Source: Meira nashicola
Lineage: Eukaryota; Basidiomycota; Exobasidiomycetes; Exobasidiales; Brachybasidiaceae
Direction of reading: 5' to 3'
Length of the DNA: 64,000 bases
Assembly (NCBI GenBank): GCA_001600355.1
Contig: BCJU01000007.1
Span: 62,001-126,000, forward strand
The number at the start of each line of letters is the position of its first letter. The first letter of the stretch is position 1. The translations under genes and the position numbers were made by a program. Shown one piece after another: positions 5,086 to 35,370 of the stretch. The notes beneath the pieces were generated by a model. The model saw only the letters and a list, made by a program, of their open reading frames with translations, was not told the origin of the DNA and ran no database searches.

Positions 5086-5098
5086 TCTTTCATCGCCA

Positions 5099-8168: not shown

Positions 8169-8400
8169 TCAAAATGTTGAATGCTTAACTAAAAAGGTAA
8201 ACTCCGAAACCATTATTGAAAATGATGACACACAGTAATCCTGAGTCTTTCTTACTCTTCGCTGACTGAAAAGATCTAATGCTTTCTTTGCCTTCAGTGC
8301 CCGATGAAAAGTTTGACTGACTAAGAATGTAGACATATGGATCAACAGAGTATTCAAATGAAATCTCCGATGCATCAAAACTTGTCTCATTCAAAGCCGG
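8169..8400 (-). pseudogene. kinase C-terminal tail relic
   Basis: The minus-strand frame ending near 8200 contains SIRSFQSAKSKKDSG, matching the tail exon of the kinase gene in copy 2 (SDKSFQSAKSEKDSE, 26258-26344). The sequence then passes directly, near 8370-8395, into the 5' leader equivalent to 27690-27720. The kinase catalytic region (about 1.3 kb in copy 2) is deleted here. Confidence 0.7.
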
Positions 8401-8724
8401 GTCTTTTTATAGTATATGGATTTGAACATCTGCTTTATATTTGTACATATATTGTATAGCAATAATTTGGGTGCTTATTTGATTAAAGTCTTGAAGGGTG
8501 TGACATGATTAGATTTTGGATGCACACAAAGATTAGGTTTGTGATGGATCCGTCAATTTCGCCGCTACGCGTATCTTGGAAGTAAAGGCATCAGGTCTTC
8601 AAAAAGGGGCATGATAGTGTACACGTGCGTCTTNCAACTGGACTGCCCTTCACTATCTTCTTCAGCGGTGTCTCACAATTGTATTTATCCATATTGTGAG
8701 TTTTGGAGAGCGTGGGTGCCGCGA

Positions 8725-8900
8725 TTCCTTATGACCTGGCTCTGAAAATGCTCAATTTAACAAATGACTACCCAATTTCGGCATTTTAGGAATCTTTACA
8801 AAGTTCGCCAGAATCGCTGGCAGCCCTGAAGTCTAGGACTCTGCACAGACTTTCTATGATTTCTCACGGCTGGCTCCCTTTGTCAATGCTACCAAAATTG
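8725..8900 (+). pseudogene. short conserved frame upstream of gene X, degenerate copy
   Basis: This is equivalent to 28038-28232 in copy 2. Here the start codon is GTG instead of ATG, and an in-frame TAG replaces the codon after S-A-F. The rest (S-R-T-L-H-R-L-S-M-I-S-H-G-W) is preserved. It is broken in this copy. Confidence 0.5.
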
Positions 8901-9278
8901 GAGTACGACAGAGCTAAACGCCTCACTGAGCAGCGATTGAATTGACACGCTAAAAGCGCGGGTTCTTCATGTCCTAGCATGTACAATACTCTCCCTTTGT
9001 TTCGGAAAGGGTATTGCTTTTGGACAAAGACAAGCTGAGAAAATAACAAGCAATGTATCTTTTCCTTAAATATCCCTTTGTGCAATAACATCGGTGTTAG
9101 ATATCCTTTGTGCCGTACTCTACGTTTCATTTTTCTAGATAGCGAACTGAAATTCAGTCCCATAGCAACACATTCATATTTAAATCTGCGATATTACAAG
9201 GGAATTTCCGCTCAAAGCACCCTGATCGATTGGTGAACCTCAACTACCGTCATCTACTCCAACCAGATTATTTTCAAG

Positions 9279-10203
9279 ATGACCACGCGCGTCTACCTTC
9301 CTAGACACGATACACTTTATCAAACCACTGGGATAGATAGTCTCGTGACATCTGTTGCTGCATATGTTCAAGCAGCAGATGGGTCACACACGCCGAACAA
9401 AGTAGCATTAATGTATCGCGCATTCTGTGAGGCACTCATACAAGAGAATCTCCTGAAATTGCATCAGATTCCCGCCATTATTATCCAGTACCAAGGTATT
9501 TCTTACAAGGTGAGTATTGGTGAAGGAACGCTGAGCAGGCAAATGAACTGACTGCCTCTTCGTAGATTTGTGCCAGGTCTGTAGAACAAAATGGGAAATC
9601 CAGAAAACGTAAGCGGACAGCACTTGAGAATCCCGTACCAGCTTCATCTAAAGAAGCAGAAAAATTAGAGCATTCAGACTTCTTGAGATGCTGACGAAAT
9701 TGATAAAGACGAAAAATGCAAGAAAAAGCGGAGAGGCTGATAGATCCCTACGAATAGAAGAAGGACAAGAAAAAAGCGCAGGTGAACTTGTCAGACTGCA
9801 TTTGGAGAAGCTGTCAACTGCAGAAATCGACTTTTCTCAGGCTCGCGAGAAGGTAAGACTTGCTTGCTTTCATCTGGGTCAAGCATATGCTCGATGGATT
9901 TTCGAGCTTCTGCCAACTCTAGATGCTCCAGTGACGTCGAAGACATTTCATCGTGAGGCATATCCCATTGTCCAAGCGCACTTACTCAAGCTTTGCAAGC
10001 AGTCGAGTGAGTCATCCATACTAAAGCGGCTCGAAAGGGCAAGAAAATTCTTTCATATGGGATCCCTCATTGGAGTGGAAACATTAGCTGAATGCGAGGA
10101 CTTGACCGTCAAAAGAATGGACAAAATATCTATGGAATCGCTTTCCCTATTGGAGAAGCATTGCAAAGATGAACTTTCCAAGATGAACATCACTGGGTCC
10201 TGA
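9279..10203 (+). pseudogene. gene X, copy 1 (frameshifted)
   Basis: Exon 1 (9279-9509) starts with MTTRVYLPR and ends at a gtgagt donor. Exon 2 starts after ctcttcgtag at 9567 with I-C-A-R-S-V-E and a basic KSRKRKR patch. A single base is missing at about 9659-9664 relative to copy 2 (gcagaaaaatt against gcaggaaaaatt), which leads to TGA shortly after. The downstream frame (9688-10203) stays open and about 95 percent like copy 2, so the lesion is recent or an assembly error. See the intact copy at 28594-29519 for the protein description. Confidence 0.75.
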
Positions 10204-11289: not shown

Positions 11290-12333
11290 ATGGCGTTTTA
11301 TGATAAAGCTGGCTCATGGTGGGGTGAGCCAAGGATATGCGTACGACCAACACCATGCACAGACGAGCTGCAGAAAGAGCTCACCATTCCTCTGTGCTTC
11401 GTTCGACAAGGAGGAGACAATTCACTTCAATTCGTACAGCATATGATCCAGCAGCTGTATGTGGAGGATGGCCGGTTGGTCGATGCAGAAAGCAATGACC
11501 TTGACCTCTCAACAGAACCGGGTGCATGGCCCGATGTTGTATATCGATTCATCCCGGTGAATACGAATGTCGACTCGCTCACCTCCGTTCGGGGACCGGA
11601 AGGTAAATCCCCGCTTCCGCGACCCGCATCAACTCAATCAGAAAGCACTTACAGTGATTCGAAACGGACATCTTCAAGAAGTGGACAGGTGAGATTTCTG
11701 TGGCATGGGCTCGCTTCATGACAGTCATTCTGACATTCTGACCATCTGCATCTCCAAAGTCAAAATTTCGTTCCTCTTTGCTGGCTAGAGATGGCCGGTG
11801 TCTCCTTACTCAAGCAGAACGCAGTATGTGCACATCAGCACATGTTGTTCCAGTCACCAGACTCGATGTAAGTGCAGAGTTTAAACTAAATTGAAGAGAT
11901 GCGCAGAAGCTTACCACATCCTTATTCAATCCATTATTAGGTCTACCGCATGCTTCTCGGTATTCAATCAGAAGGACAACTGTACTCCGCGTCTATGGGC
12001 TTTCTGATTCGAGACGACCTGCACAAATCATACGATCGATACGAATGGAGTTGGTACTGTAAAGTGAGTCAAGGAACCATGCCGAAGCTATCTTCGCTTT
12101 GGGAAAGAAAGTCTTACTGACACGAGCCTTTGATCTAGGATGGCAAATATTATCCGCACTTCTTTGCGCTGGAAGATGAGAAGATGCGATCGTTGCATGG
12201 GATGGTTGTAGATCCTGCAATCTATATGAGAGTGCAGCCGCGCGAGTACTTGGATCCACGTCTAGCAAAGTGGCACTACCGCCAATGTGTGCTTGCCAGA
12301 GTTCGTGGATTCTCGTGCGGTTTCGAGTCTTGA
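11290..12333 (+). CDS. HNH endonuclease domain protein, intact, four exons
   Basis: Exons are 11290-11688, 11760-11867, 11941-12063 and 12139-12333. All three introns are phase 0 with GTRAGT-type donors and AG acceptors, giving 274 residues. The N-terminal 110 residues are of unknown fold. A Ser/Thr-rich linker leads to the HNH_2-type core in exon 2 (FRSSLLARDGRCLLTQAE, then C-T-S-A-H-V-V-P), and exon 3-4 helices end with DPRLAKWHYRQCVLARVRG. The same architecture and exon borders occur in the gene at 38017-39138, whose tail reads F-H-Y-K-Q-C-I-L-K-H-I-R-G. Such proteins are numerous and of unknown role in fungi; a metal-dependent DNA nuclease is the family expectation. Copy 2 keeps only the last exon and copy 3 none. 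Confidence 0.85.
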
Positions 12334-13815
12334 TTAAGTAATACAAAAAAGTAGAAGATTCTATAAGGGAAAATGCAAAAACAAACTACAACAGCACAGC
12401 TTAACGACAAAGAAAAAAGAATTGCAGTAGGGAACGAATATATAGCAGGGTCGATCATGCATTGAAGCCGGGGCAAAAAAGCGCTGGTACTTCGCGTTAT
12501 CATCTACTCGCTCAAATGCTGCCCGGAGACGTTATGCACATCTATCATACCTGCATGAAATGTTATAATAAGTCCTGCAAAAATGCTCTTGGTATGATGT
12601 CTTACATTTTTGTCAGATGGGGAACGAAACTGGCTGACTTTTTTCGCAATCAAAACTTCTCAACTTTGATCCTCGGCGATGATTGTTCATGCAAAGAGGA
12701 CCATGCGTGGGAATTGGGGAACAAAGGAAAACAAGGATTGTCTTATTCAAAAACAAAGGGAACAAAGGGGATTTAAATTCGGAACGCTCAGCGCGGTACA
12801 AAGGGGTAAGAAACGAGAGAAAGGAATCCATGTAATTAGCTATATTTCTGCCGGAGGACAACGTAAATTGTTTGGGAAGAACGATTGAGAAAGCTGATGC
12901 TATAACAAAGGCGCGCAGCGGTTGTAATTCAATATCATCGAACGGAGCGTTAGGTTTCCCCATACTGGTCTCTTACCGAAGAAGACTAAGCATTTGAATA
13001 AGAAGAGCAAAGCTATCTTGTTCACGTAGTTTTCTGTATCTTACTCATACTCCGTCTGCCTAGCAGATTTTCGTTCATGATCTCGCAAGTAGTTAGATGT
13101 CATACCGAAGTTGCCATACATCCGTCTAATTGACACCAAAAAGAGACCATGCGTTGCAACGATGACCCACAGCGTATTAACGATACCAGCAGTGACAGTA
13201 CAAAGTAGTTCAAAAAAAACCTGAGGGCCACGAAAGAATCGCGCTTCGGCCTCACGGCCTAGATTTTGATCCTTTGACATATGGATCCTAAATGAAGGGG
13301 TAAAAAGAAATGTATGCAACAACTGTATGCATGTAACGGCACAATACTAGGAATTTCAGCAATGAAATCAATGAATATGACAAGCATATGCGTGAGAACC
13401 TCGACAACTGTGATTGCACCTGCCCCAGAGCCCCTGTCTACGATCTCAAAATCTTTATTGGTAAAATATTCTTTGCCTTTGCAAGATTCTCGTGATCATC
13501 CGTTGTGAAAAATTCTCAATTCAACCAGCGCGTTAGATCATCTGCGAAGCGGATTCAAATTTTTTTGTGGCTTTTAAATCTGCCTCCAATCGCATCGCGC
13601 TAAGATTTTGTCATGATTCCCAAAGGATGGATTTGTCGATAACAAGAAAGCAGGTCACATTCATTGGATGCAAGTCAAAATTACCATATGGACCACATCG
13701 CAATATCAAAGAACAACAGGGTAGTAAACAAATAATCTTGTCACATATACCCAACCGTCATGTAATGGTTTTGCTCAGCAGAGTGTGATTTTGTAAACGG
13801 CAGGGGCAAACGGTA
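12334..13815. repeat. conserved 3' block of the repeat unit, no gene assigned
   Basis: This block is found in all three copies (12340-13815, 29990-31290 and 33640-34950) at roughly 80-90 percent identity. On the minus strand a frame here (13041-13322) reads MSKDQNLGREAEARF and then a hydrophobic span (GIVNTLWVIVATHGLFLV); copies 2 and 3 keep the start but shift frame. On the plus strand each copy has a frame beginning M-R-x-N-L-D-N with C-P-(R/K) and VYDLKIFIGK (or a close variant), ending at different stops. Neither is clearly coding. It could be an old exon set or a conserved non-coding end of the unit. Confidence 0.5.
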
Positions 13816-14262
13816 CGAGAAGCAATCTCATTCGATCCTTGGGAATTCGAATATACTCCACGTCTATTCCCTTTGCTAACTTTTGCTCTTTGTGCAATTA
13901 TGGGATTTGCATTAGCTGTAATGGCATCATGGCAACTCTTGATAATAGGATGGGGAGAAACGAGTGTAGAAAATAGCGATAACACACATTATCGAGAAGT
14001 AAGCAAGAGAAAAGGATTATCATTCAGCAACGTTTACGATCTCGGATTCATGCATAATCTTGCTCTTTATTTCAATCTTGGACCATTCTCACATCATTCA
14101 ATTTTCTCAATATTTGCACCTTGGCGTATAGAACCATATTCAGACGGTTGGTATTTTGCTAAAAAGATGGGAATGTCTGGACGTCATGAAGGAGTGAATC
14201 CAGAAGAAGAATTAACGGACGATGAAGTGGAAAGAGATGATGCACATCCTCTGGCAAAGTGA
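13816..14262 (+). pseudogene. DHHC palmitoyltransferase, 3' part only (ZDHHC16/Pfa-like)
   Basis: The frame is open from the repeat border to TGA at 14260-14262. It encodes a transmembrane helix (LLTFALCAIMGFALAVMASW), the post-DHHC motif G-E-T-S-V-E, then G-L-S-F-S-N-V-Y-D-L-G-F and N-L-A-L-Y-F-N-L-G, and an acidic C-terminus. The TTxE-like motif followed by N-x-Y-D-x-G is typical of S-acyltransferases. The Asp-His-His-Cys cysteine-rich domain and the N-terminal helices should lie upstream, but the sequence there is repeat copy 1. The gene is therefore cut by the repeat border, unless its 5' exons lie beyond copy 1, and I did not find them. The remaining part shows no further damage, which suggests a recent event. 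Confidence 0.7.
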
Positions 14263-14428
14263 TTTCCTTATTTGCATTGTATTTCATAGTTACCTTTTTT
14301 TATTGTATCACTCACTTATACTATCGCCTGATACCCTTTCGCAATATTTACAGTTTTACAGTATAATTGAACGGATTAATTAAATTGCAAAACGCAATGA
14401 AATACTTATTGTACAATATGGGGTATAA

Positions 14429-15466
14429 TTATTCGTGATGAACAACGAGCTCTTTGCTTGCTTCTACATCTTCATATCTTCCAAGTTTTCTCTTCCGTGC
14501 ATGGCGTAAACGACGAAGAGATGCAAATGCAAAATAGATGCCAAAAGAAAACAAGAAGAGAATGATAACGAGAGAAAAAAAGTGATTCTTTATATTTTCA
14601 ATTTGTTGACCGATACGTAAAATTGCTTTTGCATCACCTTTATGCCAACTACTTGCACCAAGATGTTCGAAGAGNGGAGTTTNNACGTGACCGTTTAATT
14701 TATTAGCTTGATCCATNATNGTTAAAGAAGGTTGATCGCCATACAATCTATGCATCGTACTTAAAAAGTGACAACCTGTCGAAAACATATTTGTTATATA
14801 AGGAGAATTAAACCAATTTCGATTAAAAGTGATTAAATAATCTTCAACGTGAGACCAAAAAGGATGATCGGGTGTTGAAGCGATGAAAGCGTTATTGATT
14901 CCGCTTGGATTTGCAGGAGGAGTTAAAAAACTTTCATTTCGTAAACCGTCCAGAGGTGTTTTACAACCTAAATCTAAATCTAGATAAATTCCACCAAATT
15001 TATGCAAAACCAAATAACGTAAAACGTTTGAACGTTGGATTTCAAGTGGATAATTTAAATATGTTTCTAATAAATTTGGAAATTGTGTGTTGACAAAATT
15101 TCCTGATTCTTCATCTTCCCAAAGTTTAAATTGCCAATCAGGATGTAAATCTATACAACTCTTTCTTGCTTCTATCCATTTTGGTTGCATTTTTAAATTT
15201 CCTAATTTAACTTGATGAATAATTCTTGGAATTCTTTGTTCATTTGAAATGTTGAAAAGAGATTCTTTATTTCTTGATCGTATGCCCTCTGGGGTTATAA
15301 CGATTGTACGTGTATGCGAGAATGGGAAGAAAATAAATGTTCCTAATAAAGTACTTGCTAGATGAATTCGAAGTCCAAATTCTTGTGCGATTCCAGTCAT
15401 GAACAAGTACATTGTTGCACATACTGTTAAAAGAATTAAACATTGTCTTAATGCTGTCGCTTTCAT
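14429..15466 (-). CDS. GT32-type glycosyltransferase (DXD sugar-binding, inositolphosphoceramide mannosyltransferase-like)
   Basis: Single exon of 345 codons, ATG at 15464-15466 and TGA at 14429. Residues 5-25 and about 38-50 are hydrophobic (type II membrane anchor). The catalytic domain follows: IPRIIHQVKLG at about 80, a WQFKLWEDE stretch, RSNVLRYLVLHKFGGIYLDLDLGCKTPL with the DXD motif at about 160, and an H-P-F-W segment. A C-terminal helix (FFSLVIILFLFSFGIYFAFA) near 300 is followed by a basic tail. This fits SUR1/CSH1-like Golgi mannosyltransferases that mannosylate inositol phosphoceramide. Four to five N bases (14675-14720) fall in the middle but keep the frame. It faces the palmitoyltransferase fragment tail to tail. 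Confidence 0.85.
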   Translation of the reverse strand: MKATALRQCLILLTVCATMYLFMTGIAQEFGLRIHLASTLLGTFIFFPFSHTRTIVITPEGIRSRNKESLFNISNEQRIPRIIHQVKLGNLKMQPKWIEARKSCIDLHPDWQFKLWEDEESGNFVNTQFPNLLETYLNYPLEIQRSNVLRYLVLHKFGGIYLDLDLGCKTPLDGLRNESFLTPPANPSGINNAFIASTPDHPFWSHVEDYLITFNRNWFNSPYITNMFSTGCHFLSTMHRLYGDQPSLXXMDQANKLNGHXXTXLFEHLGASSWHKGDAKAILRIGQQIENIKNHFFSLVIILFLFSFGIYFAFASLRRLRHARKRKLGRYEDVEASKELVVHHE

Positions 15467-18575: not shown

Positions 18576-18783
18576 ATGAAGGATGAGCTTACATTCACCT
18601 TTAGCCTGCAGACAAAGAGACGGATACAAGACTTGCTTATACGCTTCTCTCTCATACCGGTGAGAACTTTGTCGCAAAAACAGGCCAGGTCCTCAACATC
18701 TCAAATGGTGCTGCATTGCAATTTAACTCTCCCACGAAGGCTCGCGTATTCTACTTCGCCAAGCGTGGCCGTCTGCCTTGATG
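18576..18783 (+). pseudogene. secreted-protein relic, N-terminal piece
   Basis: One frame (about 18590-18776) reads T-R-L-A-Y-T-L-L-S-H-T-G-E-N-F-V then QVLNISNGAALQFNSP and ARVFYFAKRGRLP, interrupted by an early TAG and ending TGA. A second, poorer copy of the N-I-S-N-G-A-A-L segment lies at 31830-31920. The companion C-terminal piece may be 19434-19612. No family name can be given; the Asn/Ser/Gly-rich beta-strand pattern suggests an extracellular protein. Confidence 0.4.
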
Positions 18784-21452: not shown

Positions 21453-21719
21453 CAGGATATTCAAGGGAGAAATATTCCCTGGTAGCCTGTTATTTAGAGC
21501 ACTTTCTCATTCTCTTAGTCATGAGTAAGAGACAACCACCTTATTTTAGACCTTCTGGATATGCCTAGATGGAAATCTCTTTACATACTATGTTTCATCA
21601 CTGCACTATTACAGAGCTGTTTGTTCTTTATTTTTGACACGAAAAAGACAAAGAAGATAACGCCGCTACTCGGTAACATTTTAGTATTTTTTTATTCACA
21701 TCGAACGCTTGTTAAGGGA

Positions 21720-24700
21720 TTACAACATCTTGTTGACTTGACTCTCTTCATCAAGATTTCGAGTTCCACGTTGTGTTTCTTGAATGTAGCGCCAAATTGC
21801 TGCTGAGGGTATGCCGTCTTTCGCGTAGCGTAAGGCATTGAACCACACACCTTCATTATCACTCTGCCCTGTGCTGTCAAGACGAAGAAATATTTTCACC
21901 TCGTCAGGTGATCTGGCTCTTGTGGCTTCAATCTTTACAGAGAGTGGGAGCCCTTGTGGGTAGGTTCCATCTGGAAACCACATCCTTAGCATCCTTCGTG
22001 GAATGAGAATTGTAGGTGTTCGTTGACCTCGTACACCAATCCTTGGCGAATACCCTGTTGAAGGCAAAGTTCTTTGAAAAATCTGAAATGCTGGAACATC
22101 TTCCTCCTCGTCTGATTCAGGCTCAGAAAAATGGTTTGGGGCATTTCGATCGCTATGATATGTAATCGACTGTCTTGCAACGATAGCTGCTTGGCTAGCG
22201 AATGCAGTCAAACGTGAAACGACGTATCTGAAGCGAAAATTTGCTGATATTGGAATCCATGTATTCGAACTGAAGGAATACAGCGACAAGCCCACTCCCC
22301 TAAGAGGGCTACTCACCTCTTCTGGGAAGCCAGTTCCATCCCACAAAGGGCAAGAAGAGCCGAATACAAGCTTAACAAAGTACTAGTGCAGTAGGAAAGT
22401 TAGTGTCAAAAAGGTGGAAAATACCTACTAATGAGACTTACAAATTCTTTCTTCCCTGTATCTCGTTCTAAGTACTTTCTTGTCTGTGGTGACACTGGGA
22501 ACGTGATTTTCATCTCATTTTTTGGACGCACAACGACTGTCTTGCCTTGAACTGAAACTGGAAGTTCACCCTCGATCATCTCCCTGTAATTGCTGTTTTC
22601 AGTCACGATATTTGACGACACCTTTTGTTTCTCTCTAAGGAGAATGCTTTTCATACAAAAGTGAGTAAAAGGAGTCAGATTTATGCTTACTGATTCACGT
22701 CCCCCGGCAAGCACTTACATGCGTCTCTCGGCTTCCTTGTTAGAGCAGCAATGAAGCAACCTTTCTGCCAAACGCAATTGCCATTTTCTTCGATGGAAAA
22801 CAGTTTCAAATTGCAGAAAGAGCTTTCAAAGAAGAATAGTCAGTTTCTCTTCGTTCGTTTGTTACTTCCCGGACAGTTCGACCCTTATACAACTCACATC
22901 CAAATCTTTCAGATAAAGCTTCAACCCGCCATAGATCTCACCGTATTTCGGTGAAGTGCCGAGAAATACGTCACTCTGTTGGTATCAAAGACTGAAATGT
23001 ATAAGTCGAAAGCTTTAGTGGTTTCACGTCATTGCCATTCAACTCACCGCTGAATCTGGATCTCCGACGAGCAATTGAAGAGATACAAACAAAGGTAATC
23101 CACTGTCGTTACTGACATTCGCTGACTGCAGATGGAAATCAATCACAGTTTTATCAGCCTTCATTACGCTTGTTGGCCTGCTTTCTAAAGTTTCGACAAA
23201 ATGCTTACCTGCAGGATGTTTTCCATTTGCTTTCGTGGTAATAATATATCGGTCAAATTGGTTGCTATCCAGCTATAGTACGCTTGTCTCGGTTCACGGT
23301 TTTGTTTTCTCACTAGCCTCAACATGTATTCGCTAGCAATCGAGAAGTGTTAGCNTCTGTCATAGATGTGCACAGTAAATACCAACGGAACACTCACCCA
23401 TTTTTTAGCAATCTTGCTACCTCCATCATATACGCAGCATGCTTGTGGCGGTAGTCTTGTTNTNTCTCCTTTTTTTGATCGTCATGCCTTGCAGCATGAG
23501 CAGCTCTGTTTTTTTCAAAGAAAATATTAGAATTTAGTTTCATCTCTCAGAAAAGACACCTACAAACTTACACAGTCTTGCTTGCGGAGCAGATTAATCC
23601 GTACCGGAGATATAAATTGCGGAGTTCAAGTATCATTGGCGAAAGAGTGGGGTTTGCAACATTTTCGGCGCATTGATTGAAGCGTTCCGGTCTCTCTATA
23701 CAAGGGGTGGAGTTGTAACCAATGAAGCTGACCAGTGGCATGCCAAAACCGGCACGAAATTCCAGAAAAGCTTCTTTCAGTTGGAAACTGCCCGTGATGC
23801 AAGAGAGCAAAGCTTCAAATACTGCAACATGGTCATGTGCGTCTATTGCGATTGTAAGGAAAAAGTCGTGTAAGTGGAAATTGGGTTGGCTCTGCGANAA
23901 ATCTGAGGAGAACTCACCCTGTGATGTTATGGGAAAAATGTTTGCCGCGATGAAATACAGCTCTCCGCCGTGATGAAGCTCGCGGGCCGCAGATTGATAG
24001 AAATGCGATTCGATGTGCGCAAAAGAATCTGAGGTATGTGTTGCGATGGCAAGATTGATTTGATGATCTTTCATTCTTCTTTGCAATGAGTTTGTTCGCC
24101 CAACATAGACTCCTGCTACTTCGTTGTTCTTGTTCGTCATCAGTACGAGGTATGTACCCCCTGCTGTCCCTAACTTGCTGTTGTGTGCCTTGATTTTGGC
24201 TTTCTCTGGCACCGAAAGAGTCAAAGTTTCTCCTTTCAAAATACGGCTGAGAAATGATGCTGCAAAATTTGACAATGTCCGGAAAAAAAAATTTGCCGTC
24301 TCGATGCCAGAATGCAAGATATCACGAACAGAATCGTCCTCCATAAGCGCAAGACTCATTGGCAAATGTAGATAGCCGTTCGAAAGGCGCGCAAAAGCAT
24401 TCAACGCTCTATCTACCGCCTCTGCAAGCACCATCGCAGGCTTGTGTGGATTAGGACACTTGAAGAGGATGTACTCGATTTGGCCATCTGCATAAAGTTT
24501 GCGCGTAGCGAATCTTATGGTTTCGATGATCACNTCGCCTTGTTGTCTACTATTTGGTAAAGTCCTAGTCTTGAACTGCAATTTGCTGCTCTCAAAGAGT
24601 CGCTCTGGTCCAAAGATGAGAGGCTCGTAATGCCGTTGTACTGCGGCGGCAAAAGTCTTTGAAACTGAATTTGTCCCTGCATAGTCATCTTCAGCATCGT

Positions 24701-24818
24701 CGGCTTCATTCTCATTGACCTCATCAACAACAAAATCCGAATATGTATCATCACTATCATCGTTCTCCTGAAAATCTTCAACATAAAGGTCATCATCTTC
24801 TTCGAACATTCTCTCCAT
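21720..24818 (-). CDS. large nine-exon protein with a GIY-YIG endonuclease-like domain
   Basis: Exons (minus): 24818-23572, 23505-23398, 23332-23209, 23125-23048, 22975-22898, 22822-22719, 22646-22442, 22382-22317 and 22169-21720. Phases agree throughout, giving about 819 residues; retaining the last 147-nt intron also stays in frame (868). The N-terminus is very acidic (residues 5-45). A GIY-YIG-type core at about 215-260 reads GGTYLVLMTNKNNEVAGVYV then G-R-T-N-S-L-Q-R-R-M-K-D-H, so the first motif is G-T-Y and the second Y-V-G, with the Arg of helix 1 present. Later exons are helical (REPRQAYYSWIATNLTDILL) then beta/acidic (SEPESDEEEDVPAF), with no named domain. No organellar signal is seen. 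N bases at 24534, 23898 and 23462-23464 leave local doubt. It may be a stand-alone nuclease related to fungal T5orf172/Mug113-type proteins, but I am not sure. Confidence 0.75.
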
Positions 24819-26255
24819 GGTTATTTGCAGAGTAAAGTATGGAAAGCGGTGTAGTACTATTGTGTTGGTGATAGAGAAAGTCTGAGCGGAAACGAGTGAA
24901 TTTGGTGTGTTACTTGTATAGTGAGAAGACTCTATTGATTATTGTACACTCTTTACATGGACCAAGAAAGAATATATTTTAACGAAAAACTACGAGCAAG
25001 CTCTTTATGGCCAATACTACTTTTGTTATGTGCCTTTGTTATGTTCTTGTGTCCCTTTCTTTTTGCAAGATCAGAGTCTCCAGTATGCGGAGATTGTGCC
25101 ATCGATTCATCTTTTCACAATTTTCGCCTTAATTCCTCCCCTTTTACGCCCTTTTATGATACTTCACTGGGCGAGAGAAATAGAATCAAATCCGCACAGT
25201 AAGTTTTCCGGACAAGCTCACACATCATCTTCTCTAAAGACACGCGATGAAGTGCTTCGCGGAAAATCATTCCCTTTGTTCGTTTTGTGAATATACACAG
25301 CAATGCGCGAGGTTGAAGCCACTTTCCTGCTGAAAATGAGTGTAAATAGTCAACAACGGAACGCGCCACTAAATTCCCATTTATCATTTCCCTTTGTCAA
25401 GCTTTCAAAGAACAAAGGGTTTTCATTAAAATTATTTGCGTATCCCACGCATTATTGAGTGCAATGCTAAGGCAATCCAATCTCTCCTTTGTCCTCGTCG
25501 CGTCCTTTATCTTAATTTTAATTTGATCGCGAAGCAACAAAAGGCAAATTGGGCAATACACAGATATATTGTTCTTTTTGCGAATACGCAGGGCAATTTC
25601 CTTGGAGAACGGATCTAATTGATGGGAAACCAAGAGTGCATTGTATCACTCGTCAAATACCTTTGGATAATCCGGCTGTCGTCAGTGGAGCAAGGAAAAT
25701 GGTGCCTGGCTTTGTCGTTACCTTGGTCCAGGTTAAGGGTCGCACCAAATCTATTCGACTCAGTAGAGAGAGACACAGGAACGCGGCATGACAGATTGAT
25801 CTTCGCGCGAATTATAGGCAATTGTATCGCAAAGGAGAATCTAGCTAGCTCTTCATCAAAGTGCATCATGGTTTTTCTTTCGGTCTTCATATCTCGAAGT
25901 GAAGTTTATCAGTATCAGATGTTTTAATCATCTAAAATGTTACAATCAGAATTCGACTTGCCGTGGAGAATATCTGCTCGAAAATCGTGCTTTTTTGTAC
26001 TGTGTCCGAAATGTAACACAAGTCAAAGTCAAGTCTCCGATGCTGTCTGCTCGCCCATGGGTAGTAACAGCCAGGCCTTTTGCAGCCTTATTTGATCCAA
26101 ACGCAAGCAGTGCGCACCATTTTCAGCATTAGTATCCCCTGGACAGACGATTCAATGCTTGATGAGAAAGGTGAATTCAGGAAATCTTTTCAAAGCCAGC
26201 ATGACAGGNTTAGTACACATGTTAAAAAAAAGCATAAATTCTCTCGAGTACACTC
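24819..26255. other. gene-poor stretch
   Basis: It contains a plus-strand frame at 24942-25202 with a strong hydrophobic segment (SLWPILLLLCAFVMFLCPF) and overlapping 80-100-codon frames at 25549-25927. None is conserved in a way I recognise. The hydrophobic segment could be a leftover of a membrane protein. Confidence 0.3.
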
Positions 26256-26257
26256 AC

Positions 26258-27671
26258 ATGAGTTCTGAATCTTTCTCACTCTTTGCTGATTGAAAAGACT
26301 TATCGCTTCCTTCGTCTTCAATGCCTGATAAAANCTTTGTGTGACTTGAAATATAGACGNACAGATCAGCGGTGTGCTCACTTGTGACCTTCGACATACT
26401 CACCTATTATGATCGTTCATCAAGGCTTCTAACATCCATGAAAATGCCAAAGGCGTACTTGCCTCGCGTCGTGAAATAGGCTTTTCGATGAAGNAGAATA
26501 GGTAGAATGTAAGCATAAAGACTGAAAACAGAAATCTGATACTCACGTCTATTTGCAGAAATAGCGCCAGCACCTGAGACACATCATCGCTCAAAGGCTC
26601 TGAAAACATAGCAGCTATCGATTTTTCAAGTGACACACCCTCAGACCATTGAAAAGTACTGTATAATTGTAAAAGTGGAAGGTGAGATTTCTCCATGTAT
26701 TTAAAATTTTTCCAAAAATGCTTACCGCCACGTCCAGATCTCGTANAGTAAAATACCAAGTGACCATAAGTCTGTTTTCTTTCCATACTTGAGACCACGA
26801 ATCATCTCCTGAAATTTTTAGAAGAAAAAGTTAATAAGATGTAAACCATAGAGAGGTTACGAAAGATACGCACAGGCGACATATAATCTTTTGTCTTGAA
26901 ATCACATCGGAGAGGGGAAAAGAACAATTGTCAGTGAAAATAAANTATTGATCCTGAATATCGTACAAGACTCACTCCAGCTATTCCCCATCTGCCGATA
27001 CTATCACGGGGCTTTGAGATAGCAAGTCCAACGTCCGCAAGTTTGATCTGCATTCCCCGCGTGAGAAGAACTGGATGAAGGAAAAAAAGGTCAATCAGGC
27101 TGCATATCACACGCAGGAAGATTCTCTCTTACCATTCTCTAATTTGATGTCCCGATGAATTACAGCGTCTTTTGCTAAAGCACCTTCATGAAGATAATGA
27201 ACAGCCGAACAAAGCTGGGCGCAAATACTATTTCTGGTCGTAGGGTCGCTTAATAAAGAACAAAAAGATTTAATTCAATTTCTTCAGTTTTTTTTTTTGA
27301 TAATTACATCACTCACATGTTTTGTTTGCAAAAGAGAAAATCACATAAAGTGCCTTGCTCGCATAATTCTAATTCCAATTGTAAAAAGTTATTCTGGAGT
27401 GCAAAACTCTTTAATGCGACAATGTTCACATGTTTAAGCTTTGAGTGAATGTTTGCTTCCCGTTTCATATTTTCGAGGGCACCAAGTGCTTGATTTGTTT
27501 TGATACATTTGACTGCAACTTGCTGAAGATTGGAAAGAAGGTGAGAAAGAGATAGTATCTTCGATAGCAAAAAGTACTCACTTTGTCTGTCTGGAGATTA
27601 ATTGCTTGGTACACTATTCCAAAAGCCCCTTCGCCTAAGCAAGAAATGAAACGAAACTTTTCACAATTCAT
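26258..27671 (-). CDS. protein kinase-like gene, about nine exons, one frame mismatch
   Basis: Exons (minus): 27671-27582, 27522-27317, 27248-27133, 27070-26976, 26894-26874, 26808-26726, 26690-26547, 26480-26404, and probably 26344-26258. Visible subdomains: GEGAFGIVYQ (glycine loop), V-A-V-K-C-I-K (ATP lysine), an alpha-C Glu in R-E-A-N-I-H, H-R-D-I-K-L-E-N (catalytic loop), D-V-G where kinases have D-F-G, Y-M-S-P-E and D-L-W-S-L-G. The junction 26726/26690 is off by one base, and an N lies in that exon, so this may be an assembly error. Otherwise the catalytic residues K, D and N are present. The closest general type is a Ser/Thr kinase of the ULK/calmodulin-kinase-like groups, not resolved further. 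The tail is conserved in copy 1, where the body is deleted. Confidence 0.7.
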
Positions 27672-27724
27672 CTGAGCAAAGAANATGTTTTATGCATCAA
27701 AATTTTGTCTAATTCGAAGCCGGG

Positions 27725-27735
27725 CCTTTATATAG
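27725..27735 (-). promoter_or_regulatory. TATA box of the kinase gene in a divergent promoter
   Basis: On the minus strand ctatataaagg lies about 55 nt upstream of the kinase ATG (27671). The shared 300-bp region to 28030 separates the kinase from the divergent short frame and gene X. Copy 1 has ctataaaaaga at the same place (8405-8415). Confidence 0.5.
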
Positions 27736-28037
27736 TATATGGATTCGAACATCTGATTTATATATGTACATATATTGTATAGCAAAATTATGGGCGCTTA
27801 TTTGATTAGAGTTTTGATGGGGGGTGGACATGATTAGATCTTGGATGGACATAAAGATTAGCTTTGTGATGGACCCGTCAATTTCGCCGCTACACGCGTT
27901 TTGGAAGTAAAGGCATCAGATTTTCAAAAAGGGGCATGATAGTGTACACGTGCGTCTTGCAACTGGACTGCCCTTTACTATCTTCTTCAGCGGTGTCTCA
28001 TAATTGTATTTATCCATATTAGTGAATTTTGGAAAGC

Positions 28038-28232
28038 ATGGATGCCGCGATTCCTCATGACCTGGCTCTAAAAGTGCTCAATTTAACAAATGACTATCAA
28101 AGTTCGGCATTTCAGGAATATTTGCAAAGTTCGGCAGAATCGCTGCCAGCCCTGAGATCTAGGACTCTGCACAGGCTTTCTATGATTTCTCACGGCTGGC
28201 TCCCTTTGTCAATGCTACCAAAATTGAAGTAA
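28038..28232 (+). other. short conserved frame upstream of gene X (64 codons)
   Basis: ATG at 28038 starts MDAAIPHDLALKVLNLTNDY and a helical region ending S-R-T-L-H-R-L-S-M-I-S-H-G-W. The frame closes at TAA inside a possible donor (gtaagacc at 28229). Splicing to the gene X start (acceptor attttcaag before 28594) would be out of frame. It is therefore either its own small gene, an upstream ORF or an alternative first exon. Copy 1 has lost the ATG and gained a stop, so it is not strongly constrained. Confidence 0.4.
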
Positions 28233-28593
28233 GACCTAGCTAAATGCATCGCTGAGCAGCGATTGAACTGACACGCTAAGCGCGGATTTTTCATGCCCTC
28301 CCATTCATGCCCTCCCTTTGTTTCTTTGTTTCGCGGACAAGGGCAAGCTGAGAAAAGATAGCACGCGATGTATTTTTTGCTTAAATATCCCTTTGTGCAA
28401 AAACGTCGGTGTTAGATATCCTTTGTGCCGTACTCCACGTTTCAATTTCCTAGATAGCGAACTGAAGTTCAGTCCTACAGCAACACACCCATATATAGAT
28501 TTGCGATATTAAAAGCGAATTTCTGCTCAAAGCACCCTGATCGATTGGTGAACCTCAACTACCGTCATCTACTCCAACCAGATTATTTTCAAG

Positions 28594-29519
28594 ATGACCA
28601 CGCGCGTCTACCTTCCTAGACAAGAAACACTTTATCAAACCACTGGGATAGATAGTCTCGTGACATCTGTTGCTGCGTATGTTCAAGCAGCAGATGGGGC
28701 ACACACGCCGAACAAAGTGGCATTGATGTATCGCGCATTTTGTGAGGCACTCATACAAGAGAATCTCTTGAAATTGCATCAAATTCCCGCCATTAATATC
28801 CAATACCAAGGTATTTCTTACGAGGTGAGTATTGGTGAAGTAACATAGAGCAGACAAAAAAACTGACTGCCTCTTCGTAGATTTGTGTCAGGTCTGTAGA
28901 ACAAAACGGGAAGTCCAGAAAACGTAAGCGGACAGCACTTGCAAATCCCATGTCAACTTCATCTAAAGAAGCAGGAAAAATTAGAGCATTCAAACTTCTT
29001 GAGATGCTGACAAAATTAATAAAGACGGGAAATGCAAGAAAAAGCGGAGAGGCTGATAAATCCCTACGAATAGAAGAAGGTCAAGAAAAAAGCGCAGGTG
29101 AACTTGTCAAGTTGCATTTGGAGAAGCTGTCAACTGCAGAAATCGACTTTTCTCAGGCTCGCGAGAAGGTAAGACTTGCGTACTTTTATCTCGGCCAAGC
29201 ATATGCTCAATGGATTTTCGAGCTCCTACCAACTCTTGATGTTCCGGTAACGTCAAAGACATTTCATCATGAGGCATATCCCATTGTCCAAGCGAACTTA
29301 CTCAAGCTTTGCAAGCAGTCGAATGTGTCGTCCATACTAAAGCGGCTCGAAAGGGCGAGAAAATTTTTTCATATGGGATCCCTCATTGGAGTGGAAACAT
29401 TAGCTGAATGCGAGGACTTGACCGTCAAAAGAATGGACAAAATATCCATGGAGTCTCTTTCCCTACTGGAGAAGCATTGCAAAGATGAACTGTCCAAGAT
29501 GAACATCAATGAGTCTTGA
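28594..29519 (+). CDS. orphan protein X, the only intact copy (289 aa, two exons)
   Basis: Exons are 28594-28824 and 28881-29519, joined in phase 0 (donor gtgagt, acceptor ctcttcgtag). The product has no recognised domain. It has a helical N-terminal part (SLVTSVAAYVQAADG, VALMYRAFCEALIQENLL), a basic nuclear-localisation-like patch (KSRKRKR, residues 86-92), a Lys/Glu-rich helix (about 125-150) and a longer helical region containing F-S-Q-A-R-E-K-V-R-L-A, an R-A-R-K-F-F-H-M-G turn and a final Leu/Lys helix (SLSLLEKHCKDELSK). Copy 1 (9279-10203) has a one-base deletion, and copy 3 (32940-33510) lacks exon 1 and has a T-run frameshift. It is divergent from the kinase and, in copy 1, upstream of the HNH gene. 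Nuclear location is inferred from the basic patch only. Confidence 0.75.
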
Positions 29520-29760
29520 TTTGCTTTTAGGTCGCTCGTGCACTTTCTCGTGGTGTTGCATGTTGTAATTCATCCTGAAAAAGTACGAATATGATTTTCG
29601 TCTACATTTCAACGTCTTTCATAGTCTCCTTCTCCATGAATTCCTCACTGTACCTACTGTCTCTAAAGTTGAAGTCAGTCTTCCAACAAAGTACTTCTCG
29701 TCACTGATTCCATTTGCCACCCATCAACCCCTGACCTTACTGACACATGCCCCTGATCTA

Positions 29761-29990
29761 GGATAGCAAATATTATCCGCACTCCTTTGCGGTGAAAGAT
29801 GAGAAGATGCGATTGTTGCACGGGATGGTTATAGAAGCTACAATCTATGAGAGTGCAGCCGCGCGGGTCCTTGGATCCATGTCTTGCAGAATAGGACTAC
29901 CGCCAATGTGTGCTTGCCAGAATTCGTGGGTTCTCGTGAGTTTTCCGGTCTTTATCAAGTATAAAAGAAGTACAAAAATCTATGAAGAAA
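29761..29990 (+). pseudogene. HNH gene remnant (last exon only)
   Basis: Matches exon 4 of the copy 1 HNH gene (12139-12333) starting at the same acceptor (tgatctag). Relative to copy 1, two bases are missing at about 29847 (atctatgaga against atctatatgaga), shifting the frame before the conserved W-H-Y-R-Q-C helix. Exons 1-3 are deleted, so it is not functional. Confidence 0.75.
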
Positions 29991-31650
29991 AATGCAAAAA
30001 CAAATTACAACAGCACGCTTGACAACAAAAGAAAAAGAATTGCAGTAGGAAACGAATATAAAACGGAGTCGATCATACATGCACTGAACCAGGGGCAAAA
30101 ACGCGCTAGTACTTCGCGTTATCATCTACTCGTGCAAATGCTGCCTGGAGATGTTTTGCATATCCACCATACCTGCATGAAATGCTCTCAGTCTTGCGAA
30201 AACGCTCTTGGTATGATGTCTTTAATTTTCGTCAGATGGAGAGCGAGACTGACTGAATTTTTTTTCGCAATAAGTACCTCTCAAATCCGGCCCTCGGCGA
30301 TGGCTGCGCATGCAAAGAGGACCATGAGTGGGAATTGGGAACAAAGGAATATAAAGATTGTCTATTCAGGAAACAAAGGAAACAAAGGGTATTTAGATTC
30401 GGAACGCACGGTACAAAGGGGTTCATATAACTCGCTATATTTCTGCCGGAGGTCAACGTGAATTGTTTGGGAAGAACAATTGAGAAAGCTGAAGCTATAA
30501 CAATGGTGCGCAGCGGTGGTCTTTAAATATCATCGAACGGAGCGTCAGGTCTCCCTGTAATGGCCTTTTACCGAAGAAGACTAAGCATTTGAACAAGTAG
30601 AGTGAAGGTATCTTGTTCGCGTAGTTTTCTGAATCTTACTCTTACTCTCATCTGCGCAGCCGATCTTCATTCACGATCTCGCAAATAATCCTTCCGGAGG
30701 AGATGTCATACCGGAGTTGCCACACACCCGATTAATTGAAATTCCACTTTTTACCAAAAAGAGACCATGCGTTGCAACGATGACCCGGAGCGTATTAATG
30801 ATACGAACAGCAACAGTACAAAGTAGCTAAAAAAATTTCCGAAAGCCACGGAAGAACCGCGCTTCGGCCTCACGGGTATAGGTTTTGATCCTTTGACATA
30901 TGGATCTTAAGTGAAGGTGTAAAAAAAATGCATGCAACAACTCTACGACCGTAACGGCAGAATAATAGGAATTTTAGCAATGAAGTCAATGAATGTGATA
31001 AGCACATGCGTGCAAACCTCGACAACTTTGATTTCACCTGTCCCAAAGCCCCTGTCTACGATCTCAAAATCTTTATTGGTAAAACATTCTTTGCCTTTGC
31101 AAGACTTTCGCGATCATTCGTTGGGAAAATTTCTTATTTCGTCAGCGCGTGAGATCATCTGCGGAACGGATTCATTTTCTTCTGGCTTTTAGATGTACCT
31201 GCAATCGCATCGCGTTAAGATTTTGTCATGTCTCCTAAAGGATAAATTTGTCGATAACAAAAAAGCACGTCACATTCATAGACGATCTGGTAGAAGCTCA
31301 TTGATTGGTACCTGCAGACACCGTGTCTTTGTCTACAAGAGTGATACCCCTTCTTAAATCTTTACTAGACCATCCCTCTGAGAACAAGGGAAAACCTTTA
31401 CTAGCTTTCAGCCATTGTTTCTTCCACGCTCGCATTTCTGAATCTGAATCACGATTTTAGTTTTGGCATTTTATGGGTTGCTTTTCGAAAGCTAAGAGAA
31501 AAAAAAAGTTCGTAATATTGCTTCATCACTCATTTTTTCATACTGCTTCGCGTATTTTTTCACACTAATGAATCCCTCATGAGCTTCGTCGCTCAGTGAT
31601 TAAGACTGGTCCAATCAGGGGGAGGGCTGGAAGCAGGGAAGAAATCCATA

Positions 31651-32940
31651 CGCAAATTGGTGCTTTGAAGAATCAGATCTGGGTGTCGTACAATTCATTC
31701 ATTTTCAGACAAGTGCGAATAATGAATGGCTCGATCAATGACGATAAGCCAAGAATGACGCTTTGTCGATCTTTTTTCTGCTTTGCATTAGTATTCTGAA
31801 ATTTTTGAGAGGTTAGGGTTAGGGGCAAGTCTTAAACATTTCAAACGGTGCTGCTTTGTAATTCAACCCAAGTCTCCCGCGAAAGCCTGTGGTTTTACTC
31901 TTCATATTGTTGAAAGTCATCAACTTTTAGGGAAAGAGATGCAATTGTGCGAGCCACCAGAATAATGCAACCTAGGCAAGTCAAGCACATTACTCGTAGA
32001 GTTGCTTTGGATGTTACAAGGTCTCCACTCAAGTCTGAAAACTGTGTATATCCTGGAAACCGAGCACAGTATTGAAGAGTATCTCAATCTTTCAATCGAT
32101 GCTATAGATCTACATCATTGCAGATTCCCTTCTTTTCTGTATTTATTTCGCTATCTAAAGCTTTTTCTGCCTTACACCAGAATGCGAAATTGAGATTTGA
32201 TCATCCGCTCAAGCCAAGTAAAGCCACCTGCAGGGACTTTGTTACTCACTGATTTTCTCACTTTTCCTATAAGCGATTGAATTGATAAAAGTATTGTTGC
32301 TTACGTTGCACCGCTTTAAAAGGAGAANAAAATAAATATGAGTATAGCCTTTGGCTTTTCACTATAGCTATCGAAAAAGTCAAAATACTTTGGCTCGAAT
32401 CATCGCCACCACCACCACAACCACAACAACAAGCAGACAAAGATGGCGTGAATGNCCTTGCCAATTTTTCTACCGTTTCAGATACACCTTCTTCATCNTC
32501 TATGCAATACTCGTCATACTGATTTTTCCAATCACAATACCACCATCGAAGAGATGTCCTTGGACGTTTCTCCCAATCTTTCACTTGAACAAAATTCATT
32601 TTCAGAGTCTCAAACGTAGTAACAAAAGGAGCCACAGGAATAATNGTAGTATAACAGAATTTTCCAGTATTGTAACCTAATTGCTATGACTCCTTTTGGT
32701 CTTTAGGCTCCAAAATGTTTGCAGATTTATCTGAAACTCCTCATCATGAAGAATTTGCTAGATAGATACATTTGGATAACACGAACGTGACAGATTTCAG
32801 ATTTGTAAGATGTAGTTATATAAAGACACGTAAATTTTGCATGTATAGTACAAGAACGTTTTGTACATGTAAACATTGCAAATTGATGTGAGAGCCACAA
32901 AAAGAATGGGTAGCCTGCTAGGGTTGTCCCTACGATCCCA
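31651..32940. other. spacer between copies 2 and 3
   Basis: It contains a short TTAGGG pair at 31813-31824 and a decayed second copy (31830-31920) of the N-I-S-N-G-A-A-L secreted-protein relic. A ccaccacc/caacaac microsatellite (about 32405-32432) overlaps a minus-strand exon-like frame, 32590-32470. That frame is rich in Trp and charged residues (V-K-D-W-E-K-R-P-R-T-S-L-R-W-W), contains N bases and has no named domain. Confidence 0.4.
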
Positions 32941-33510
32941 TGTCAACTTCATCTAAAGAAGCAGGAAAAATTAGAGCATTCAAACTTCTTGAGATGCTGA
33001 CGAAAATAATAAAGACGGGAAATGCAAGAAAAAGCGGAGAGGTTGATAGATCCCTGCGACTAGAAGAAGGTCAAGAAAAAAGCGCAGGTGAACTTGTCAA
33101 GCTGCATTTGGAGAAGCTGTCAACTGCGGAGATCGACTTTTCTCAGGCTCGCGAGAAGGTAAGACTTGCTTGCTTTCATCTGGGTCAAGCATATGCTCGA
33201 TGGATTTTCGAGCTTCTGCCAACTCTAGATGCTCCAGTGACGTCGAAGACATTTCATCGTGAGGCATATCCCATTGTCCAAGCGCAGTTACTCAAGCTTC
33301 GCAAGCAGTCGAATGAGTCGTCCATACTTAAGCGACTCGAAAGGGCGAGAAATTTTTTTTTATATGGGATCCCTCATTGGAGTGGAAACATTAACTCAAT
33401 GCGAGAACTTGACCGTCAAAAGAATGGACAAAATATCTATGGAGTCGCTTTCCCTATTGGAGAAGCATTGCAAAGATGAACTTTCCAAGATAAATATCAC
33501 TGGGTCTTGA
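32940..33510 (+). pseudogene. gene X, copy 3 (5'-truncated, frameshifted)
   Basis: Corresponds to residues from about 100 to the end of protein X. The frame opens with MSTSSKEAGKIRAFKLL. A T-run (33353-33361) is longer than in copy 2, so the first frame ends at 33479 while a second frame carries the true C-terminus to TGA at 33508. Exon 1, the intron and the first bases of exon 2 are missing. Confidence 0.75.
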
Positions 33511-35370
33511 TTTGCTTTAGGTCGCTCGCGTACTTTCCCGTGGTGCTGCATAATCCAATTCTTCCTGAAGGAGCAAGAGCAGCATTTTCGTCTACATTTC
33601 AATGTCTTTCATAGTTTCTTACTCCATGGAAAATCTTCTTCAGTGCTGCCGGGAGATGTTTTGCACATCCACCACACCTACATGAAATGTTATCAGTCTT
33701 GCAAAAACGCTTCTGGTATGATTTTTTTAATTTTTGTCGGACGTGGAACGAGACTGGCTGACTTGTTTTGCAATAAGTACTTCTCAGCTTTGATCCTCGG
33801 CCATGATTGTTGATGCAAAGAGGACCATGCGTCATAATTGGGTAACGAAGGTGAGCCAAGATTGTCTTATGAGGAAACAAAGAGATTAAATGGGAATTTA
33901 ATTCGGAACGCGCGGTACCAAGGGGATGAGAAACGAGACAAAGGGATTTTTATGTTTCTCTATTTCTGCCGGAGGACAACGTAAATTGTTTGGGAAGAAT
34001 GATTGAGAAAACTGATGCTATAACAATGGTGCGCAGCGGTGGTCTTGAAACATCATCGAACGGAGCGTCAGGTTTCCCTGTACTGGTCTCTTATAGAAGT
34101 AAACTAAGCATTCTAACAAGGAAAGCAAAGCTGTCTTGTTCGGGATATTTTCTGAATCTTACTCTTACTCTCGTTTGCGCAGCAGTTTTACATTCATGAT
34201 CTCGCAAGTTATCCTTCTGGAGGATATGTCATACCGAAGTTGCCACACACTTGTTTAATTGAAACTTCACTATCTACCAAAAGAGACCATGCGTTGCAGC
34301 GATGACCTGGAGCGCATTAACGATGCCAGCAGCAACAGTACAAAGTAGTTCAAAGAAAAGTCTCGAAAGCCACGGAGTAACCGCGCTTCGGCCTCACGGC
34401 TTAGATTTTGATCCTTTGACATATGGATCTTAAGTGAAGATGTGAAAAGAAATGCATGCAATAACTCTACGACCGTGACGCCAGAATGCTAGTAATTTCA
34501 GCAATGAAATCAATGAATGTTACAAGGAAATGCGTGCGAACCTCGACAACTTTGATTGCGCCTGCCCCAAAGACCCTGTCTGCGATCTCAAAGTATTTAT
34601 TGATAAAACATTCTTTGCCTTTGGAAGACTTTCGCGATCATTCGTTGGGAAAGATTCTGTATTTTTCGTCAGCGCGTTAGATCATCTGCAAAGCTGTTTC
34701 AATTTTCTTTGTGGCTTTTAGTTGTGCCTGTAATCGCATCGCGCTAAAATTGTGTCGTATGTCCCAAAGAATGAATGTGACGACGACAAAAAGCAAGTCA
34801 CATTCATTAGGCGCAAATAAGAACTACAAATGGACGACATTGCAAAGTCAAGGAGCAAAAAGGAAGCGAACAGATTATTCTGTCACACATATCCATCCGT
34901 CATATAATAAATTTGCTCAGTAGAGTGTGAGATCGTAAACGGCCAGGGCATGGACGATCTCGAAGAAACCAATTGATTCGTATCTGTAGACACCGTGTCT
35001 TTGTATATCAGAGTGATCTCCCTTCTTCAGCCCCTACTGGACCACTCCTGTGAGAACAAGGGAAAAACCCAACTAGCTTTCAGGCATTGTTCCTTTCGCC
35101 CTCGCGCTTACTTTACTGTTTTGAGGGACGATTTTAGATTCGGCACTTGATGTGCTTTTCGAACGCTAAGAGAAAAAAACAATCGTACTATTGTTTCGCT
35201 ACTCATTTTTCGTACCGCGTCGCTTTCGTACTGCGTTGCGTATCCTTTCGCGCCAATTAATTCGTCATGAGGCTCGTCGAATAGTAGACAGGAGTTTGTT
35301 CCTGTCCAATAACGAGGTAGGGCTGGAAGCAGGGAAGAGAAATATACGCTGATCGAATGTGGGGACAATA
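32941..35370 (+). repeat. composite repeat unit, copy 3 (truncated)
   Basis: It starts abruptly inside gene X exon 2 (at the M-S-T-S-S-K codons). It then jumps at about 33640 from the gene X 3' flank (equivalent to 10325) to the conserved 3' block (equivalent to 12505), losing the whole HNH gene. It ends with about 400 bases shared with the end of copy 2. Kinase, promoter and exon 1 of X are absent. Confidence 0.8.

What the first reader, a model, noticed from the sequence alone, without database searches (positions are those of the whole stretch)
8169..35370. Three-copy composite unit combining a kinase, an orphan protein and an HNH nuclease
Copies 1, 2 and 3 share order and orientation: kinase (minus), divergent promoter, gene X (plus), HNH gene (plus), conserved 3' block. 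Each copy has different deletions. Kinase and X survive in copy 2 and HNH in copy 1; copy 3 has neither. A linked nuclease, kinase and unknown protein, repeatedly duplicated and decaying, is what one expects of a selfish or defence-like cassette. Fungal Spok meiotic drivers also pair nuclease-like and kinase-like domains, but in a single protein; that analogy is speculative. I see no known transposase.
Basis: partly seen in the sequence, partly recalled or inferred. Interest (0 to 1): 0.85.

Follow-up and report, generated by a model that had tools for sequence, protein, structure and literature searches.

The report
Duplicated kinase–orphan–nuclease gene cassette
A block of three neighbouring genes (a protein kinase, a protein found so far only in one fungal genus, and a DNA-cutting-type enzyme) has been copied many times in a rearranged part of a small fungus's genome and is decaying copy by copy; whether it is selfish or simply an ordinary duplicated gene cluster is not yet known.

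Summary
Three degraded copies of one block (kinase, promoter, X, HNH gene, 3' block) lie at about 8.2-13.8, 26-31.9 and 32.9-35.3 kb. The genome is Meira-like (smut relatives). Genome-wide, pieces fall in 21 clusters, all on five small contigs or the last 33 kb of one large contig. One further locus on the same contig (237-243 kb) has all three genes in the same order. The proteins look real: intact spliced copies exist (kinase and X in copy 2, HNH in copy 1), and dN/dS is 0.13-0.26 between intact genes. No locus examined closely keeps all three intact. X was found only in Meira among named sources; the HNH_2-like protein has a Cryptococcus relative; the kinase is of the eukaryotic Ser/Thr type. 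The tracts compared share no common end, inverted repeat or transposase, and one spans more than 10 kb, so segmental duplication and ectopic recombination explain them better than a self-contained mobile element. The Spok comparison fails (other nuclease, other kinase type, separate proteins). A toxin-antidote or homing-like role is not excluded: the HNH gene, introns included, is the most homogenised stretch between two loci. Best reading: a birth-and-death gene cluster in a duplication-prone compartment, function unproven.

The parts
8228..8344 (-). copy 1: remnant of the kinase 3' end (kinase body deleted)
   Evidence: 75% to 26252-26368
8370..9278 (.). copy 1: intergenic/divergent promoter region
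   Evidence: 88% to 27691-28593
9279..10203 (+). copy 1: gene X, one-base frameshift, pseudogene
11290..12333 (+). copy 1: HNH gene, 4 exons (11290-11688, 11760-11867, 11941-12063, 12139-12333), 274 aa, intact; HNH_2-like 17.8 bits, below Pfam's cut-off of 21
12331..13808 (+). copy 1: conserved 3' block, apparently non-coding
   Evidence: no codon-phase bias in the last 260 bases of the block across its copies
21653..32200 (.). tract matching C6:9909-19000 (86-94%), interrupted at about 23061-25588; right end not reached
26317..27671 (-). copy 2: Ser/Thr kinase, 9 exons, 268 aa, intact (VAVK, HRD, DVG in place of DFG, SPE in place of APE; motif names recalled)
   Evidence: (PF00069 168.5 bits)
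27691..28593 (.). copy 2: divergent promoter region
28594..29519 (+). copy 2: gene X, 2 exons (28594-28824, 28881-29519), 289 aa, intact, RKRKR basic stretch
29736..29951 (+). copy 2: remnant of the HNH 3' end
   Evidence: 86% to the HNH segment of copy 1
29954..31279 (+). copy 2: conserved 3' block
31280..31897 (+). copy 2: tail, its first 421 bases shared with C6, C8 and other loci
32935..33510 (+). copy 3: larger part of X exon 2, frameshifted
33644..35349 (+). copy 3: 3' block and tail, joined almost directly to the X 3' flank (HNH absent)
38017..39138 (+). pieces of a second HNH_2-type gene (my reading of the frames) 2.7 kb after copy 3
   Evidence: PF13391 25.5 bits with one TAG read through at C7:100594-100824 = window 38594-38824; 14.2 bits for the frame 38717-38995 alone, no hit for 38017-38289

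Best explanation
A three-gene module (kinase and X read divergently from a shared region of about 0.9 kb, then the HNH nuclease gene, then a non-coding block) was multiplied by segmental duplication and ectopic recombination inside a duplication-rich compartment of a Meira genome. The proteins were selected for function for much of that history, and copies decay by deletion, frameshift and stop codons, so intact genes are now spread over several loci (birth and death). Shown: the copies, the order, the intact genes, the constraint on the proteins, the confinement to a few contigs, the lack of shared ends among the tracts compared. Inferred: that the module arose once; that the basic stretch (RKRKR) sends X to the nucleus; that the HNH protein cuts nucleic acid there; that the kinase regulates this activity.
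For: 21 clusters of unit DNA, all on C6, C7, C8, C10, C12 or the last 33 kb of C2. 16 of 16 matches of the X protein lie on C6, C7 or C12. Same gene order at C7:236985-243303, 66-87% identical by part. Homologous tract wider than the unit. Junctions differ between copies. No inverted repeats beyond chance at the tested edges (best 13 bases, E 0.095); no transposase or integrase domain in 31 distinct window reading frames scanned. dN/dS: X copy 2 vs C7:239k 0.18 (dS 0.56); HNH copy 1 vs C7:240k 0.13; kinase copy 2 vs C7:148k 0.26 and vs C6 0.21. Kinase exon lengths identical in 4 of 5 copies compared, copy 2 included, while intron lengths vary.
Against: The compartment is not shown to be subtelomeric: the nearest unit piece is about 93 kb from a telomere repeat. 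Ordinary duplication alone does not explain why the HNH gene with its introns is far more alike between two loci than its surroundings (introns 196/219 vs non-coding 880/1276). No annotation of this genome was available and the function is open.
Confidence: 0.7

Rival explanations
1. Toxin-antidote or drive cassette: the HNH nuclease harms cells or nuclei lacking the cassette, and the kinase or X neutralises it.
For: Nuclease and kinase pairing is a known theme: SPOK (PMC6660238, passages), called widely distributed in PMC12693581 (passages), and CR/Crinkler proteins, some with HNH nucleases (PMC5289972, passages). The proteins are constrained and the loci are rearranged.
Against: No locus examined closely keeps all three intact; intact kinases (copy 2, C7:148k, probably C6:12k, which has 4 codons with N) sit at loci without a whole HNH gene, and both intact HNH genes at loci without an intact kinase. 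Genes are separate. M. miltonrushii proteins match decayed copies in the window. No phenotype data.
Confidence: 0.12
2. Homing-like spread: the HNH nuclease cuts related loci and its own gene is copied in by repair, homogenising the HNH gene.
For: Between copy 1 and C7:240k the HNH gene is 92-97% alike in exons and 89.5% in introns against 69% in the promoter, X-HNH spacer and 3' flank (Fisher p = 2e-11), with edges near the start and stop codons. HNH dS 0.21 versus X dS 0.62 between the same two loci.
Against: One pair of loci only; ordinary gene conversion would do the same. The 828 bases before the HNH start are also raised (666/825, 81%) and were not in the comparison set, so the left edge is stepped. 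Copies without HNH in copy 2 and C6 keep its 3' end, so they are deletions, not empty sites. No recognition site known.
Confidence: 0.1
3. Chance neighbours only: three unrelated genes swept along together by duplication, with no joint function. This is compatible with the best explanation and differs only in denying a joint role.
For: Kinase pieces without X and HNH_2 matches away from the unit exist; an HNH relative occurs in Cryptococcus while X was found only in Meira among named sources; unrelated gene fragments lie near the copies.
Against: The same order at diverged loci; a divergent kinase-X arrangement, X whole or partial, at 5 of 9 kinase loci.
Confidence: 0.35

Closest known systems
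Gene X proteins of Meira miltonrushii (FA14DRAFT_162778, _158863, _151910, _175203, _151902)
   Same: 66-90% identical to X of copy 2; P0008 matches the copy 3 frame at 174/179, frameshifted tail included; P0003 matches copy 2 in exon 1 (77/77) and is closer to copy 1 after it (150/159 against 139/159)
   Different: The kinase and the HNH protein gave no hit named as M. miltonrushii, so linkage there is unknown
Cryptococcus gattii CGB_B9770C (HNH_2 protein)
   Same: 37% identity over 224 aligned columns, covering N-terminal part, linker and HNH domain
   Different: No X homologue was found outside Meira among named sources
Spok spore killers
   Same: Combine a nuclease and a kinase; multi-copy
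   Different: One protein, PD-(D/E)XK nuclease, ELK-like kinase (PMC6660238, passages)
CR / Crinkler-type toxins
   Same: Nuclease (sometimes HNH) with an N-terminal header; kinase domains occur (PMC5289972, passages)
   Different: Header fold not shown here (model too poor); kinase is a separate gene
Birth-and-death gene families in duplication-rich fungal regions
   Same: Dispersed, decaying segmental duplicates with intact members (general knowledge, recalled)
   Different: No paper on this trio appeared in the listings (titles and abstract starts only)

Membership tests
Spok | nuclease and kinase in one protein | tested here: not met
   Separate genes on opposite strands
Spok | PD-(D/E)XK nuclease domain | tested here: not met
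   The only Pfam hit at E<=0.1 is HNH_2, 17.8 bits (cut-off 21); its Cryptococcus relative scores 42 bits
Spok | ELK-like kinase | tested here: not met
   Pkinase PF00069 168.5 bits, nearest solved chains by sequence PLK4 and CaMKII
HNH_2 nuclease family (PF13391) | domain above curated cut-off | tested here: inconclusive
   17.8 against 21 bits, but AHVVP and DDLH stretches kept and 37% identity to a 42-bit member
DNA transposon / mobile element | common ends with inverted repeats | tested here: not met
   Homology ends differ; no inverted repeat beyond chance at the edges compared
DNA transposon / mobile element | transposase or integrase | tested here: inconclusive
   None in 31 distinct window frames scanned, not all frames; a spliced gene could hide one; the own-genome search for reverse transcriptase did not complete
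Homing endonuclease gene | empty allele with recognition site | tested here: inconclusive
   The two HNH-less copies with a clear junction keep the HNH 3' end; no strain comparison was possible
CR / Crinkler toxin | ubiquitin-like header domain | tested here: inconclusive
   Model of the Cryptococcus relative had pLDDT 38
Toxin-antidote drive | killing and rescue | not testable with these tools
   Needs crosses or expression

The most novel reading that the evidence does not exclude
A nuclear selfish module of three separate genes in a basidiomycete, in which an HNH nuclease drives copying of its own gene between loci and a linked kinase and an orphan nuclear protein control or neutralise it.
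Probability: 0.09. Interest if true: 0.8.

Novelty: new member of a known kind. Interest (0 to 1): 0.42.

Why it matters
Basidiomycete selfish genes are little known (general knowledge), and here a protein found so far in one genus, a kinase and a nuclease are linked and repeatedly copied, with several copies intact and under constraint. If a drive or homing function were shown, it would be a multi-gene counterpart to Spok. If not, it is still a clear case of how a small fungal genome makes and loses gene clusters.

Tried and rejected
Mobile element with own ends: no common boundary among the tracts compared, no inverted repeats beyond chance. Spok: see membership. Repeat-induced point mutation as the cause of decay: TA/AT 0.64-0.67 and CpG observed/expected 0.91-1.05 in the three copies, like the rest of the window. 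End of the 3' block as a coding exon: variable sites by codon phase 45:42:41. Known RNA gene in the window: none at Rfam gathering scores; no tRNA by ARAGORN. Fold of X (pLDDT 44) and of the C. gattii HNH relative (pLDDT 38): too poor for a fold search, none run. X profile against solved structures: no hit at E<=1. HNH against solved structures: two weak chance-like hits, E 0.34 and 0.79.

A contig-overlap idea (C2 right end = C10 left end) was weakened: 96-97% identical, not the same. In one search the HNH comparison was run one base out of frame and is void; one search is the correct one. In one search the non-coding comparison set left out the HNH 5' flank (666/825, 81%) and the X intron (37/55, 67%).
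Full report
Where it is. The window is part of contig C7 (284,556 bases) of an unnamed 17.9 Mb, 20-contig genome. Gene X of copy 2 has 9 hits at E<=0.001 in the protein collection: 5 from Meira miltonrushii, 3 from sequence archives without a name and one without a source. P0003 equals copy 2 in exon 1 (77/77) and is closer to copy 1 afterwards (150/159 against 139/159); P0008 matches the copy 3 frame at 174/179 including the frameshifted tail. I infer a Meira species or strain near M. miltonrushii.

The unit. Copy 2 gives its best-kept left half. On the minus strand is a 268-residue kinase with nine exons; PF00069 scores 168.5 bits. It has VAVK, HRD and a DVG in place of DFG; the copies at C7:148k, C6, C2 and C7:237k have DFG. 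In the protein collection 13 proteins reach E<=1e-20 among 648 candidates; the best is a Paramecium kinase at 34%, and none is named as fungal. About 0.9 kb away, on the plus strand, is X, two exons and 289 residues, with a basic RKRKR stretch; neither its exon frames nor its relative P0001 match a Pfam family over the cut-off. Copy 1 gives the right half: an intact four-exon HNH gene of 274 residues, followed by a 3' block that appears non-coding. The HNH domain scores 17.8 bits against a cut-off of 21, but the protein is 37% identical over 224 aligned columns to a Cryptococcus gattii protein that scores 42 bits. The HNH protein had 6 hits at E<=0.001; only the C. gattii one bears a name.

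Differences between the copies. Copy 1 lost the kinase body between 8344 and 8370 and its X is frameshifted. Copy 2, and the copy on C6, lost the front of the HNH gene at matching junctions and kept its 3' end. Copy 3 lacks everything before X exon 2, and the HNH gene. At C7:236985-243303 all three genes are present in order: X and HNH are open from start to stop with GT-AG introns, the kinase is broken (a stop, lost splice sites). At C7:148513-151754 the kinase is intact, X is cut short and joined to the 3' block. The C6 kinase is open with 4 codons holding N; the C6 X has three stops. Of the loci examined closely (copies 1-3, C7:148k, C7:237k, C6:12k) none keeps all three intact; the other clusters were not checked gene by gene.

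Genome-wide spread. Searches were pooled. Of 23 clusters, 21 hold DNA of the unit and two hold only HNH_2 family matches. The 21 lie on C7 (8), C8 (5), C6 (3), C2 (3, all in its last 33 kb), C10 (1) and C12 (1); copies 2 and 3 of the window form one cluster. The tool states that such counts are lower bounds. A search with the X relative P0001 gave 16 matches, 11 on C7, 3 on C12 and 2 on C6. HNH_2 (PF13391) matches: 8 of 8 lie on C7 or C8, 2.2% of the genome; that search reads exon by exon and missed the HNH of copy 1. Of 9 kinase loci, 5 still have X, whole or partial, beside them. Exact telomere repeats (four units) were found at the first bases of C2 and C4, at the last bases of C10, and near 6.97 Mb on C1 and 679 kb on C5, which I take for their ends without having seen those contigs' lengths; none on C6, C7, C8 or C12. 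The nearest unit piece is about 93 kb from such a repeat. I therefore call it a duplication-rich compartment, not a subtelomere.

How copies spread. C6:9.9-19 kb is collinear with window 21.7-32.2 kb at 86-94%, apart from about 2.5 kb with a GIY-YIG gene that this stretch of C6 lacks. The homologous tracts have different ends, and the edges compared show no inverted repeat beyond chance. No transposase or integrase domain was seen in the 31 distinct window frames scanned. This fits segmental duplication with ectopic recombination.

Selection. dN/dS by a Nei-Gojobori script: X copy 2 vs C7:239k 0.18 over 289 codons (dS 0.56); HNH copy 1 vs C7:240k 0.13 over 274 codons (dS 0.21); kinase copy 2 vs C7:148k 0.26 over 265 codons, vs C6 0.21 over 261. 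Pairs with broken members also stay below 1 (X copy 2 vs C6 0.30; X copy 3 vs copy 1 0.41; kinase C7:148k vs C2 0.39; HNH copy 1 vs C8 0.35), so much of the constraint is older than the decay. Kinase exon lengths are identical in 4 of 5 copies compared, copy 2 included, while intron lengths vary.

An oddity. Copy 1 and the C7:240k copy have HNH genes 168 kb apart. Between them X exons are 83% alike and the X intron 67%, but the HNH exons are 92-97% alike and its introns 89.5% (196/219), against 69% (880/1276) for the promoter, spacer and 3' flank. The HNH 5' flank, left out of that set, is intermediate (666/825, 81%). HNH therefore has a more recent shared history than its neighbours: gene conversion, or an HNH-driven event. 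This rests on one pair.

Judgement. The cassette is real, multi-copy and was selected. Selfishness or defence is possible but untested; membership in Spok was tested and fails. Literature searches for Meira miltonrushii, for HNH with subtelomeric or basidiomycete families, and for HNH endonuclease with Ustilaginomycotina showed nothing on this unit in the listings of the open library (the listed papers were not opened); most subscription papers are not in that library.

Noticed in passing
window 23568-24938 (-): Single-exon open frame (456 aa stop to stop, two bases read N) with a GIY-YIG nuclease domain (25.2 bits, over cut-off), inside the duplicated tract but absent from the C6 copy.
   Followed up: partly
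window 13789-14262 (+): Open fragment starting at the end of the copy 1 3' block; it looks to me like the C-terminal part of a DHHC palmitoyltransferase (recalled motif; no significant Pfam hit).
   Followed up: no
window 4496-5089 (-): Fragment of a P-type ATPase (E1-E2_ATPase 56.3 bits), seemingly truncated.
   Followed up: no
window 14429-15511 (-) and 16629-17987 (+): Long open frames of a glycosyltransferase (DXD region, 66.9 bits; some bases N) and a TPT-type transporter (94.9 bits) between decayed copies.
   Followed up: no
C2:3827343-3830964 and C10:1207-4828: 96-97% identical ends of two contigs: a duplication or two haplotypes near a telomere-bearing contig.
   Followed up: partly
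M. miltonrushii P0003 (FA14DRAFT_151910): X protein that is copy 2-like in exon 1 and copy 1-like afterwards: recombinant copy, or an assembly or gene-model artefact.
   Followed up: partly
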